A stretch of 64,000 bases of DNA from Nymphaea colorata (taxonomy: Eukaryota; Streptophyta; Magnoliopsida; Nymphaeales; Nymphaeaceae): positions 3,202,723 through 3,266,722 of the forward strand of contig NC_045145.1 of NCBI RefSeq assembly GCF_008831285.2, read 5' to 3'. Position 1 is the stretch's first letter, and the number at the start of each line of letters is the position of its first letter. The position numbers and the translations under genes are program-made. Below, piece after piece: positions 14,567 to 20,500 of this stretch. The notes beneath the pieces were generated by a model. The model was not told the DNA's origin, did no database searches, and saw only the letters and a list, made by a program, of their open reading frames with translations.

Positions 14567-17500
14567 GGAGGGAGAAGAGGGAGTGCATACTTTGGATGAA
14601 ATACAATGTCATTCACAGGAACTACGTGATGCCTTCCATTTCTTGACTTTGGAGAACACCAAAATGTGTATCTGTCATCCAACAAATAGTTGGTTCAGCA
14701 TTAATATTAGGAGCCAGGAGAACTAAATGCCACAGAAAGAACATCTCAACCACTCCTTCAGATTACTTGTTGAAGCAATATCTGTGTCAACAAAAACATG
14801 TCGGAGAGTAGAAGATGAATATGTAGGGAAAGAAGTGTGTGCATAAGCCCATTGTTGGCCATAATTTAAATGAAGAAAGTTATGTCATGGACACAATTAT
14901 GTGATTCTCAAATGTGATGCCACAAGGACTGCATGCCTGAGTTAGTTTATTTCAAGTTATATCTCTGTAAAATGTTGTCAAATGCAATGAGGCAAAGCGA
15001 CGCATTGGGCCTGTAATGTAAGCTCCATGACCAAAATATCAAAGAGCAAGTAGGTTCTTTGTGTTGAAAGTCATGCACATTGTTACGAGAGAGAGAGAGA
15101 GGCAGCAAAAAGTTATCTTGCATTACGTGACCTTAATCTCTATTAAGAGATTAGGGTTAGGGAAAATTACAAGAGAAGTCCACTAAAAGTAACAAAACAT
15201 TTAAAGAGACATTCCCTAACTTCCTAATATTTCAGAAAACCCCTTTTTTGTATCTTTAACACTCCCCCTCAAGCTGGAGCATATATGTCAACCATGCTCA
15301 GCTTGTTACAACATCTCAGGAAATCGCCTATGGGAAGAGCTTTAGTGAGAATATCTGCTGCCTGATCTTCTGAGGAGACATGAATAGTGCTAACAATTCC
15401 TCCTTGAACTAAGTCCCGAATATAGTGGCAATCCACTTCAATGTGTTTAGTCCGCTCATGGAAGACAGGATTGTTAGCGATATATGTAGTTGCCTTGTTG
15501 TCACAATACATCTTCATTGGGAGATTCACTGAGACATCCAACTCTACAAGTAGTGATGTAACCCACGACATTTCAGCCACAGTTTGAGCCATAGCCCTAT
15601 ATTCCGACTCAGCACTAGAACGAGCCACAACATTCTGCTTCTTGCTCCTCCAGGAAATAAGATTACCGCCCACAAAGACACAAAACCCGGTAGTAGACTT
15701 CCTATCATCTACAGATCCAGCATAATCAGCATCACTATACGCCTCGATGTCAACACATTCTCCTTTCTTGAACCATAGCCCCTTTCCCGGGGCTGATTTC
15801 AAGTATCTTGCAATCATTAGAGCTGCATCCCAGTGAACTTTTCGGGGTTTTTCCATGAATTGGCTCAACTTATTCACAGCAAAGCTAATGTCGGGACGAG
15901 TGACAGTCAAATATAACAGTTTCCCTATCAGAGATCTGTAAGATCTAGAGTCAAACGGCTCTGAGTCATCATCATGTATATGAATGCGAGGATTCATGGG
16001 AAGTGTGGCAGGTTTAGCCCCCAATAGTCCCGTTTCCTGTAGAAGATCAAGAGCATATTTCCTTTGAGACACTACAACTCCTTTATTACTACGAGCCACC
16101 TCAATACCAAGAAAATAACGAAGTTGTCCAAGGTCTTTCGTAACAAAGTGTTGCTGTAAAAACTCCTTTGTTTGAGCTATCTCTTGATCATTTTCCCTTG
16201 TAAGAACAATATCATCCACGTAGACAATCAATATCACAAGTCTTGCTGAGCCTCGCTTGATAAACAATGAGTGATCAAGCTGGGATCGGCTAAATCCACA
16301 CTTAGATAACACTTCAGTAAGCTTTTGGAACCATGCACGGGGACTCTGTTTGAGTCCATAAATAGCCTTCTTTAACTTGCATACCTTGGAACACTCCCCT
16401 TGTCGCTCAAAACCAGGTGGTTGCTGCATATAAACAATTTCAGAAAGGTCTCCATACAGAAAGGCATTTTTGACATCCAATTGAAAAAGAGGCCACTCTC
16501 GTTGGACAGCAAGAGAGATAATCAAGCGAATAGTGCCCAACCGGGCCACAGGCGAAAAGGTCTCAAAGAAGTCAACACCATAAGTCTGAGTATAACCTTT
16601 TGCGACAAGACGGGCCTTGAACCTTTCAACTGACCCATCAGAATGATATTTGATGGTGAATACCCATCGTGAGCCAACCACATCACAGCGTGTTGGGGGG
16701 TCTACCAAATCCCAAGTCTCCCAAGAAAGAAGAGCATCCATTTCCTCCTGCATAGCTTGTCGCCAACGTGGATCTAACAGGGCGTGATGGTGCGAGGACG
16801 GGATAACATGACTAGATAAAGCTTGATCAAACTGTACTAAGTGTGTACTCAGATGAGCAGTAGAGACAGAATTAGATATAGGATGTAAGGTACACTGTCG
16901 CTTGCCCTTGCGAATAGCAATAGGGAGATCTGCTGCAGAATAGTCATCACTTAAACCTGAGTCAGTCTTATCAGTAGAGCTTACCTCTTGAGACGATGCT
17001 GGTGGACGGTTGAGAGAGGGACCTAGACGACGAGTGTAAACCAACGGAGGCTCAAGAAAACGTTCATGTGACCTAGGTTGAGAGGATGGAAATGACTCAA
17101 GTGACACTGGTGAAATAGGAAGAGGTATAGTATAGGTGCATGCATCTCAGATGAAGAGGGACTTGACGAAGGGAAATAAGGACGAGACTCAAAGAAGGTA
17201 ACATCCGCACTGATAATGTCTTTCTTGGTCACGGGATCAAAGCATTTGTATCCCTTTTGATTAGCTGAATAGCCAATAAAGATACATTTGATGGCTTGGG
17301 CAGCAAGTTTGCTTTTGTTCGGGCCTAGGATATGTGCGAAGCAAGTGCATCCAAAAACTTTGGGAGGTAAATGAAATAATGAACGCTCTGGATATAGAAT
17401 TTGAATTGGAATACGGTCTTGAATGGAGGAAGAGGGTAATCTATTAATGAGGTAACACGCAGTAAGGATAGCATCACCCCAAAAATAGGCAGGCATGTGA

Positions 17501-20500
17501 GAATGTAACATGAGGGTACGAGCTACATTTAGGAGTTGCCGATGTTTGCGTTCGGCTACACCATTCTGTTGGGACGTATGTGGACAAGTATATTGAGGTC
17601 GAATTCCATGGTCGGCATAAAACTGAAGTAGAATGGAAGACTTGAATTCAAGAGCATTATCAGTGCGAATATTTTTTACAATGAATCCAAACTGAGTTTT
17701 TATTTCCTTGATAAATTTTTGAAGAATACATATGACTTCAGATCTTTCCCTTAACAAGAAAACCCAACTGACTCTAGTAAAATCATCAACTAGAACAAGA
17801 TAATATCGAAAACATGATCGAAAAGGAACCCGACTAGGACCCCATACATCCACATGAATGAGATCAAAAGGACTCTGACTCGATGGACTCTGACTCGAAG
17901 GAAAGCTGCTCCGTGTATGCTTGCCCAACTGGCAGGCATCACATAAGAAGGACTCTGATGCAGGAATGTCTGGAAACATGCGACGAAGTTTTGGTACGGA
18001 AGGATGACCCAATCTGAGATGCCATTGGAAGGGAGAAGGCTTGGAAGGGACTGAAGATGCAGCAACATCAACTGGGATTGACAAAAAATAAAGGCCCTCA
18101 CGCTCATGGCCGCCACCAATCATCTTCCCAGTTGGTAAGTCCTGAAAAGAACAAGAGTCAGATTCAAAAATGACTTTACATTGTAAGTCGATAGCTAGCT
18201 GCTTCACAGATATCAAATTAACAGGAAACTGAGGTGCATATAGCACATGTGTAATAGTTCCTAAATGTGGAAGATAAATATCACTGCTACCCAAAACAGG
18301 GGACAACTTGCCATCAGCCAGCTTAACATACTGTGGTGTAGAAAATCTGACAAATGATGAAAAATTTTGTGGTTGATTACAACAATGTCTAGAAGCGCCC
18401 GAGTCTATCATCCATGTCATACCTGGATCAGCAGTAGGAGCACCAACAGAGAATGCTGAATCTACAACAGCAGCATTGTAGATGTAGAGGCAGATGTAGA
18501 GCCAGACCTCTGAGCAAGAACACGATCATATTCATCCTTACTTAGGTTAAGAGAATATGACATAGATATAGAAGGATCAGTAGAAGACTCAACCATAGAT
18601 ATTGTTGCCTTTGAATGAGTTGCCTGGGATGAAGAAGGACCTCTGCTTGTGGTGATTCTACCTCCACCACGTCCAGAGGAAACATTAGACCTGAGGTGAG
18701 GATATTTGTCCCAACAACGGTCCTCTAGATGACCAATTTTGCCACAATAAGAGCACTGAAATCTGCCACGTCCAGCACCACGGCCTGTACCACGCCCCCT
18801 AGTGCCTCCAAAAGAACTAGGGCCCCGTCCTCCTGATATCACAAGTGCAGAGACTGGTATGTCATGCGTAGTCTGAGAAAGAGTGGCTGCAAAGCGACTC
18901 AGCCTATTATACGTGTCTGCTAAATCTGGAAGTTCACTGCCTGTTAGAATTTGAGACTTTGCCACAGAGTATTCTGAAGATAGGCCAGATAAGAACTTTG
19001 CCACCATACCAGTCTCAACGTGTGATGCATAACAATGCTGGCAAGGTGGGCGAAGAGCCTTTAACCGTTCATATGCAGCAGTCAAAGTAGCAAAATATTG
19101 AGATAGGTCCTGATCCCCTTGTCGAATGTTGCATAACTCCTCTTCTAGTTGTAGGATCTTGATTACATTAGTGGCATGCGAGTATGTCTTTCTCAAGAAA
19201 GACCACATATCCTTGGCCTTGGTATAATATGCAATAGTTGGGGCTATATGAGACTCCACACTATTCATAATCCAAGACATAACAATATAATTATCTTCAT
19301 CCCACGCAGCATATATTCCTTTTTTCTCAATAGGTTCATCCTCCTCAAGAATATATTTCTTCCTATGACCAGCCACCGACATTATGAATACCCTAGACCA
19401 TATTTCATAATTTGAGCCATTAAGTTTCATCGTGGTTCCATAAGAGAATGAATTCCCAACCATCTTGTAGTCATTAGACCCTTCAGATTTACTGTTTTCA
19501 GCCATAGTAAATAAAAAAGACCAGATTGACGCAAACGTTTAAAGAAAGAGGGCTAGGAAATTACTGTCACTTCAGATCTGGTTCAGCCGATGACAAAAAC
19601 AAGAATGAACTCCCAACGACTGAAGACTGTTGCTCCCAACGACTGAAGACTGCTGCCACTTATAACAGCAGCTAGTTCTCATAAAACTTCCTGTCCACGT
19701 GTCAAAGAAATCCACGAAATCAAACAAAAAACTTGTACTAAGGATCAGCAACAGTCCTCACGCAGCCTTTCTTTACTGAATTTGTATCCACGATCTATAG
19801 AAAAAATCTGATCATATTCAAAAACTTGAATTTATAAGCAGCACATAGACTCCACAAAGCATCCACAACACCTCACGCAGCTTGACTTTACCGAAACTGT
19901 ATTTACGATCATCACAAACCACAGCGTCACACGTCACGCTGCATCCACAATAGTCTCTTCATACGACCAATATGAGGATCTGATCACGCCTTCCACATAG
20001 GCGTGATCAGGTCCTCCTTCTCACGGCACGCCCAACCCCTATTCCCTCACTGTCTCCTTATTGGGTGATAAGAGGGAATAAGGAGTAGCGGTGACAAGGG
20101 AGAGAACGAAAGAAAAAAAAAGGAACGAACTCACTTGGCTGTTCGCCGGAAAAATTGTCGCCAGAGAAGATGGTGATCGCCGGAGAAGGTCACAGGAAAG
20201 TGCACTCTGCCGTCGACGCCCACACCCGCTCTGATACCATGTTACGAGAGAGAGAGAGAGGCAGCAAAAAGTTATCTTGCATTACGTGACCTTAATCTCT
20301 ATTAAGAGATTAGGGTTAGGGAAAATTACAAGAGAAGTCCACTAAAAGTAACAAAACATTTAAAGAGACCTTCCCTAACTTCCTAATATTTCAGAAAACC
20401 CCTTTTTTGTATCTTTAACACACATAGTAAGATGTGAAACAAAAACATGGGCCCTAAATTTATTAAGAAAAAAAAAAGTTGCATTAAATATTTAAATTAT

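What the first reader, a model, noticed from the sequence alone, without database searches (positions are those of the whole stretch)
15076..20425. Very recent copia insertion inside the BUB3.3 gene, in sense orientation
The LTRs differ at one of 181 positions and the CACAT target duplication is perfect, so insertion was recent. The element reads in the same direction as BUB3.3 and enlarges intron 5 from about 2.3 to 7.6 kb. The LTR promoter and polyadenylation signals therefore lie in the orientation that could truncate or re-initiate the checkpoint transcript. Other individuals may lack it.
Basis: partly seen in the sequence, partly recalled or inferred. Interest (0 to 1): 0.7.

Follow-up and report, generated by a model that had tools for sequence, protein, structure and literature searches.

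The report
Young water-lily retrotransposon in checkpoint-gene intron
In a water lily, most likely Nymphaea colorata, one copy of an apparently recently multiplied "copy-and-paste" DNA element sits inside an intron of the cell-division gene BUB3.3, reading in the gene's own direction; it is likely just spliced out, so it is an ordinary kind of insertion whose effect on the gene is untested.

Summary
A 5,340-bp Ty1/copia element (15081-20420, minus strand), with 181-bp LTRs differing at one site and perfect CACAT duplications, lies in sense direction in intron 5 of BUB3.3 (nine exons, 25309-12311, 332 aa, open frame). Intron 5 is 7,641 bp, 2,296 bp without insertion and one duplicate. The genome held for the window fits Nymphaea colorata. 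Of 16 sibling LTR pairs there, 15 have identical LTRs and 15 perfect target duplications: the subfamily amplified very recently. The BUB3.3 copy is not the youngest. Its reading frames are broken twice; 13 of 13 siblings examined read open across each place. Not supported: recognisable LTR promoter or poly(A) signals (no AATAAA, no TATA box); splice-like sites are at chance level. Each flank has one full-length match in the assembly, so no empty allele was seen; polymorphism in other plants and transcript effects were not testable. Best reading: a recent, probably near-neutral intronic insertion, transcribed through and spliced out; the known risk is termination in the 5' LTR, as in Arabidopsis RPP7/COPIA-R7. 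New member of a known kind; modest interest.

The parts
15076..15080 (.). target-site duplication CACAT, side of the 3' LTR
   Evidence: sequence
15081..15261 (-). 3' LTR (181 bp, TG...CA)
15262..15273 (-). polypurine tract CTTGAGGGGGAG
   Evidence: sequence
15269..17107 (-). pol ORF, 3' part: reverse transcriptase (RVT_2, E 1.5e-75) and downstream RNase H region
   Evidence: RNase H by eye only
17107..17173 (-). zone of the second reading-frame break (integrase-RT linker), not shared by the siblings examined
17023..18420 (-). pol ORF, 5' part: Pol_BBD with protease motif (motif by eye), gag_pre-integrs, integrase core, SH3-like domain
18462..19505 (-). gag ORF (Retrotran_gag_2) with CCHC knuckle (by eye), 99% identical over 343 residues to a N. 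colorata protein
20228..20239 (-). primer-binding site TGGTATCAGAGC directly after the 5' LTR
   Evidence: sequence
20240..20420 (-). 5' LTR (181 bp)
20421..20425 (.). target-site duplication CACAT, side of the 5' LTR
   Evidence: sequence
12311..25309 (-). host gene BUB3.3, coding span of nine exons (25309-25193, 25114-24984, 24713-24631, 24184-23930, 22394-22313, 14671-14591, 14458-14380, 14090-13990, 12380-12311)
14672..22312 (-). intron 5 of BUB3.3, 7,641 bp, holding the element about 1.9 kb after exon 5 and 409 bp before exon 6

Best explanation
This is one copy of a Ty1/copia LTR retrotransposon of a multi-copy, apparently young family, lying in sense orientation in intron 5 of BUB3.3 of a water lily, most likely Nymphaea colorata; it is predicted to be transcribed through and spliced out with the intron, so that it likely changes BUB3.3 output little. 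Shown: element anatomy, target duplication, orientation, open BUB3.3 frame and GT-AG splice borders, siblings with identical LTRs, and two reading-frame breaks that none of the 13 siblings examined has. Inferred: the copy arose in the same recent amplification as its siblings; with its frames broken it is likely unable to supply its own proteins now, unless the breaks are assembly errors. Inferred from Arabidopsis: silencing marks on the element, read by an EDM2/ASI1(IBM2)-type complex, would keep its 5' LTR from being used as a premature poly(A) site; any effect would be a minor share of transcripts ending in or soon after the 5' LTR and lacking exons 6-9.
For: LTRs, duplication, PBS, PPT, domains. 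Open 332-aa BUB3.3. Own-genome search: 40 LTR matches scored of 316 candidates; by position they form 17 pairs including the window and 6 unpaired LTRs; of the 16 sibling pairs, 15 have no LTR-LTR substitution and one has one, and 15 of 16 have perfect 5-bp duplications. Pooled over 17 pairs, 2 substitutions in 3,084 sites give about 25 or 46 thousand years at recalled rates of 1.3e-8 and 7e-9. Frame breaks: in 13 of 13 siblings one open stretch holds the protein before and after each break, the window has none. Family in the genus: of 95 gag-like proteins found, 86 are named N. thermarum, 8 N. colorata and one Urochloa at 21% identity. No AATAAA or TATA box in the LTR; splice-like sites in the element at chance: 1 donor-like against 1.5 expected, 8 acceptor-like against 7.7. 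Precedent: EDM2/H3K9me2 suppress termination at the 5' LTR of COPIA-R7 in RPP7 intron 1 (PMC7529245, passages).
Against: No RNA, methylation or population data were seen, so splicing over intron 5 is a prediction. The 5' LTR lies where a sense transcript meets it first, as the LTR that terminates RPP7 transcripts in edm2 mutants does, and plant poly(A) signals need no AATAAA (recalled). No protein identical to this BUB3.3 was listed in a search of 5.8 billion proteins (best 120 of 211 listed), although N. colorata proteins are in that collection; the cause is unknown. The N. thermarum BUB3-3 model skips exon 5.
Confidence: 0.68

Rival explanations
1. The sense element acts as an internal terminator: a substantial share of BUB3.3 transcripts is cut and polyadenylated in the 5' LTR, giving an exon 1-5 protein of about 222 residues plus a short tail and a weak (hypomorphic) allele.
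For: Orientation and position are right for it; RPP7/COPIA-R7 and RPP4/COPIA4 show a copia 5' LTR used as a poly(A) site in Arabidopsis (PMC7529245, passages); [quoted passage not shown] no full-length N. colorata BUB3.3 protein was listed.
Against: None of four AATAAA-type hexamers in the LTR; in wild-type Arabidopsis the RPP7 site is largely suppressed (PMC7529245, passages); exons 6-9 keep an open frame.
Confidence: 0.17
2. The 3' LTR starts new transcripts that run into exons 6-9 and make an N-terminally truncated BUB3.3.
For: The 3' LTR lies only 409 bp upstream of exon 6 in the sense direction.
Against: No TATA box in the LTR; exons 6-9 encode only the last third of a beta-propeller, which is unlikely to fold alone (inference).
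Confidence: 0.05
3. The insertion is old and looks young only because the LTRs were homogenised by gene conversion or by assembly polishing.
For: The assembly is PacBio RSII, polished (PMC7015852, passages); one difference in 181 sites allows up to 2.2 My at 7e-9 and 7.7 My at 2e-9.
Against: 15 of 16 sibling pairs in different flanks also have identical LTRs, while the sibling LTRs differ from the window's 3' LTR by 2-4 substitutions, so they were not homogenised across the family; the window's duplications are perfect.
Confidence: 0.07
4. About the element, not the gene, and compatible with the above: the two frame breaks are assembly errors and the copy is coding-intact.
For: Both breaks are indel-type changes not seen in 13 siblings, in a PacBio RSII assembly.
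Against: None of 13 siblings shows such errors in the same stretches, and neither zone lies in a long homopolymer (by eye).
Confidence: 0.3

Closest known systems
COPIA-R7 in intron 1 of Arabidopsis RPP7 (PMC7529245, passages seen)
   Same: A copia element inside an intron whose 5' LTR a sense transcript meets first; the gene still makes full-length mRNA across it.
   Different: Here the host gene is a kinetochore/checkpoint gene and not an NLR gene, the intron is the fifth and not the first, and neither termination at the LTR nor EDM2/H3K9me2 control has been tested.
LTR retrotransposons in long introns of Chloranthus spicatus (PMC8626473, passages seen)
   Same: LTR elements are reported as the major contributor to long introns there.
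   Different: Here one young insertion accounts for 5.3 of 7.6 kb of one intron in another lineage.
Recent Copia activity in Nymphaea minuta (PMC13254204, passages seen)
   Same: Same genus; a recent burst of TE activity with a dominant role of Copia is reported.
   Different: Another species; whether the same family is involved was not tested.

Membership tests
Ty1/copia LTR retrotransposon | two direct LTRs with TG...CA ends and a short target duplication | tested here: met
   181-bp LTRs, TG...CA, CACAT twice
Ty1/copia LTR retrotransposon | integrase upstream of reverse transcriptase (copia order) | tested here: met
   rve in 17023-18420, RVT_2 in 15269-17107, minus strand
Ty1/copia LTR retrotransposon | copia-type gag and RVT_2 profiles | tested here: met
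   PF14223 E 2.7e-10, PF07727 E 1.5e-75, both above cut-off
Ty1/copia LTR retrotransposon | primer-binding site and polypurine tract at the LTR borders | tested here: met
   that TGGTATCAGAGC pairs with initiator Met-tRNA is recalled
Ty1/copia LTR retrotransposon | RNase H domain | tested here: inconclusive
   no separate Pfam hit; motifs seen by eye only
Ty1/copia LTR retrotransposon (autonomous copy) | open gag-pol reading frame | tested here: not met
   two frame breaks in this copy; 13 of 13 siblings open across both pieces
BUB3.3 | best matches are plant BUB3.3 proteins over the whole length | tested here: met
   Victoria cruziana (unnamed product) 85% over 331 aa; N. thermarum BUB3-3 94% over residues 1-198; named BUB3.3 proteins of Magnolia (54%) and rice (44%) over about 300 residues
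COPIA-R7/RPP7-type regulated intronic insertion | copia element in an intron, 5' LTR met first by the sense transcript | tested here: met
COPIA-R7/RPP7-type regulated intronic insertion | 5' LTR used as a proximal poly(A) site | not testable with these tools
   needs RNA 3' ends; no AATAAA in the LTR
COPIA-R7/RPP7-type regulated intronic insertion | H3K9me2 and EDM2/ASI1 binding that suppress that site | not testable with these tools
   needs chromatin data and mutants

The most novel reading that the evidence does not exclude
A copia family still jumping in a water lily has just placed a switchable terminator in BUB3.3: its 5' LTR truncates the mRNA when the element loses silencing, so chromosome alignment in N. 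colorata depends on the epigenetic state of one insertion that other plants lack.
Probability: 0.08. Interest if true: 0.65.

Novelty: new member of a known kind. Interest (0 to 1): 0.3.

Why it matters
If the insertion is polymorphic or lowers BUB3.3 output, it is a natural allele for testing how much BUB3.3 a plant needs; in Arabidopsis bub3.3 mutants misalign chromosomes, and reports differ on how far the checkpoint itself depends on it (PMC11794483 and PMC12526889, passages). More broadly, a copia family with identical LTRs in an early-diverging flowering plant would let one test whether the RPP7-type protection of intronic elements is old in flowering plants. Without RNA data it remains an ordinary intronic insertion.

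Tried and rejected
Separate gag and pol ORFs as a family trait: considered because several relatives begin at the same place in pol, rejected because four such relatives (P0126, P0136, P0140, P0153) start at an internal Met of a conserved MTG motif, because a relative (P0162) carries gag and protease in one frame, and because 13 of 13 siblings are open across the gag/protease border.

Empty-site allele in other contigs: sought with each flank apart. The 409-bp flank gives its own place plus one 48-nt match; the 530-bp flank gives its own place plus three partial matches of 71-80%. No empty site.

Other places in the window: no second copy of the element in the 64 kb; one 23-nt LTR-like match at 55612-55634. 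Copy number of BUB3.3 in the genome: asked eight times, never answered, so untested. Structure prediction and the viral, phage, plasmid and bacterial collections were not used, as they do not bear on the question. Copia lineage (Ale, Ivana and so on): not assigned.

Papers: searches. BUB3.3 with Nymphaea: 0 papers; BUB3.3 with retrotransposon: 1 listing, a kinetochore review not opened; BUB3 with eIF5A, fusion transcript and plant: 0; intronic transposable elements with ASI1, EDM2 and polyadenylation: 0. No title or abstract start listed in those searches reports this insertion; of the papers only passages were read.

Sampling bias: the 40 scored LTRs are the best candidates out of 316 for the window's LTR, and a pair counts only if both LTRs are among the 40; all 6 unpaired LTRs have element sequence on one side, so pairs with diverged LTRs are under-sampled. 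Three of the 16 sibling pairs are 8-10 kb apart (probably nested insertions) and were left out of the frame test, which used 13 of 16. In that test one of 13 linker pieces differs from the window's by a net length that is a multiple of three; it too is open in one stretch across the break.
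Full report
What is there. The window holds an LTR retrotransposon with both ends at 15081-20420 on the minus strand. Its LTRs (15081-15261 and 20240-20420) are 181 bp, differ at one position, end in TG...CA and are flanked by CACAT on both sides. A primer-binding site follows the 5' LTR directly and a polypurine tract precedes the 3' LTR. Pfam finds a copia gag, Pol_BBD, a gag-pre-integrase domain, integrase, an SH3-like domain and an RVT_2 reverse transcriptase, in copia order.

Host gene and species. The gene around it is BUB3.3, on the same strand. Nine exons with GT-AG introns give a 332-residue protein that is 85% identical to a Victoria cruziana protein over 331 residues and 94% identical to Nymphaea thermarum BUB3-3 over residues 1-198. 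Intron 5 spans 14672-22312, 7,641 bp; without element and one duplicate it would be 2,296 bp. The insertion lies about 1.9 kb after exon 5 and 409 bp before exon 6. The window is C8:3202723-3266722 of a 407.8-Mb genome in 783 contigs. Four of the eight N. colorata proteins are listed with contig lengths that equal those of C2, C3, C6 and C8 exactly; the other four equal none of the contig lengths I saw, which may reflect another assembly version. Size fits the published N. colorata genome (409 Mb, 804 scaffolds, 14 pseudo-chromosomes; PMC7015852, passages). I take the species as N. colorata; this is an inference.

A young family. The LTR query gave 40 scored matches out of 316 candidates. By position they form 17 pairs, one of them in the window, plus 6 unpaired LTRs that all have element sequence on one side. 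Among the 16 sibling pairs, LTRs are identical in 15 and differ at one site in one; 15 of 16 have perfect 5-bp duplications. Pooled over 17 pairs, 2 substitutions in 3,084 sites give an average age of about 25 or 46 thousand years at recalled rates of 1.3e-8 and 7e-9 (intervals 3-90 and 6-167). The window's copy alone gives 0.21 or 0.40 My at these rates (interval 0.005-2.2 My together) and 1.4 My (0.035-7.7) at 2e-9. The sample favours LTRs like the window's own and pairs with both LTRs alike, so it says that this subfamily has many young copies, not that all copies are young. Of 95 gag-like proteins found, 86 are named N. thermarum, 8 N. colorata and one, distant, a grass; in that search, then, close gag relatives come only from Nymphaea. 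For the RT part the best of 7,916 hits was 72% identical and unnamed, and no row of the 120 listed is named Nymphaea.

State of this copy. Gag and the two parts of pol lie in three different frames. In 13 of 13 siblings examined (of 16 pairs; three pairs 8-10 kb apart were left out) one open stretch holds the protein before and after each break, while the window has none. So the siblings give no sign of a defective parent mobilised by others; the copy was broken at or after its own insertion, or the breaks are errors of a PacBio RSII assembly. With one LTR difference and two breaks it looks older than most of the siblings examined.

Likely effect on BUB3.3. The frame and splice borders are intact. 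The LTR has none of four poly(A) hexamers tested and no TATA box; the two AATAAA in the element (17704, 16087) are what chance gives (2 against 1.7), while the rest of intron 5 has 4 against 1.0. Donor-like and acceptor-like sites in the element are at chance level (1 against 1.5; 8 against 7.7), by a simple consensus score that rates the gene's own eight donors only 2-5 of 7, so it is a weak test. The best reading is transcription through the element and removal with the intron. The known risk is termination at the 5' LTR, as for COPIA-R7 in RPP7, where EDM2 and H3K9me2 suppress it (PMC7529245, passages), and for other intronic elements in epigenetic mutants (PMC10241880, passages). None of this was measured in the water lily.

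What speaks against an ordinary reading. No protein identical to this BUB3.3 was listed (best 120 of 211 hits), though N. colorata proteins are in the collection. The N. thermarum model, judged from its protein alone, joins exon 4 to an acceptor that corresponds to window 14781, between the insertion site and exon 6, skips exon 5 and leaves the frame. Both may be annotation faults; both would also fit trouble at intron 5.

Polymorphism. Each flank gives one full-length match in the assembly, its own place, so no empty allele was seen there. Other individuals were not available.

Verdict. Observation confirmed, interpretation partly supported: a recent sense insertion from a young Nymphaea copia family, a new member of a known kind.

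Noticed in passing
9263-9385 (minus), with BUB3.3 ending at 12311: The first coding exon of an eIF5A gene follows BUB3.3 on the same strand (read by eye). In one search, 11 of the 120 listed BUB3.3 relatives (ten eudicot, one grass, Zizania) carry an eIF5A domain (ten PF01287, one PF21485 only), as fused gene models, which suggests an old neighbourhood and perhaps read-through transcripts.
   Followed up: partly
protein collection: No N. colorata BUB3.3 protein was among the 120 listed although the species' proteins are in the collection; its gene model may be missing, split or out of the length range.
   Followed up: no
14781: The N. thermarum BUB3-3 protein fits use of an acceptor at the place that corresponds to this one, with exon 5 skipped and the frame changed; an annotation fault or a real alternative splice site.
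   Followed up: partly
20478-20950: The intron stretch next to the 5' LTR has partial relatives elsewhere in the genome (80% and 71% on C5, 72% on C6), so intron 5 probably held older repeat DNA before the insertion.
   Followed up: no
19737-19795 and 19854-19910: A stretch of about 59 nt is repeated at 76% identity in the element's leader between 5' LTR and gag.
   Followed up: no
G000 C10:8217948-8228086, C1:43327323-43337528, C3:7309748-7317964: Three sibling LTR pairs with identical LTRs lie 8-10 kb apart instead of 5.1 kb and have perfect duplications: probably elements with further insertions inside them.
   Followed up: no
40911-41006 (+): U6 spliceosomal RNA gene or pseudogene, 54.1 bits.
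   Followed up: no
27965-28438 (+) and 35305-35844 (-): ORFs that by eye look like a methionyl-tRNA synthetase exon and a plastid MinE exon (not searched).
   Followed up: no
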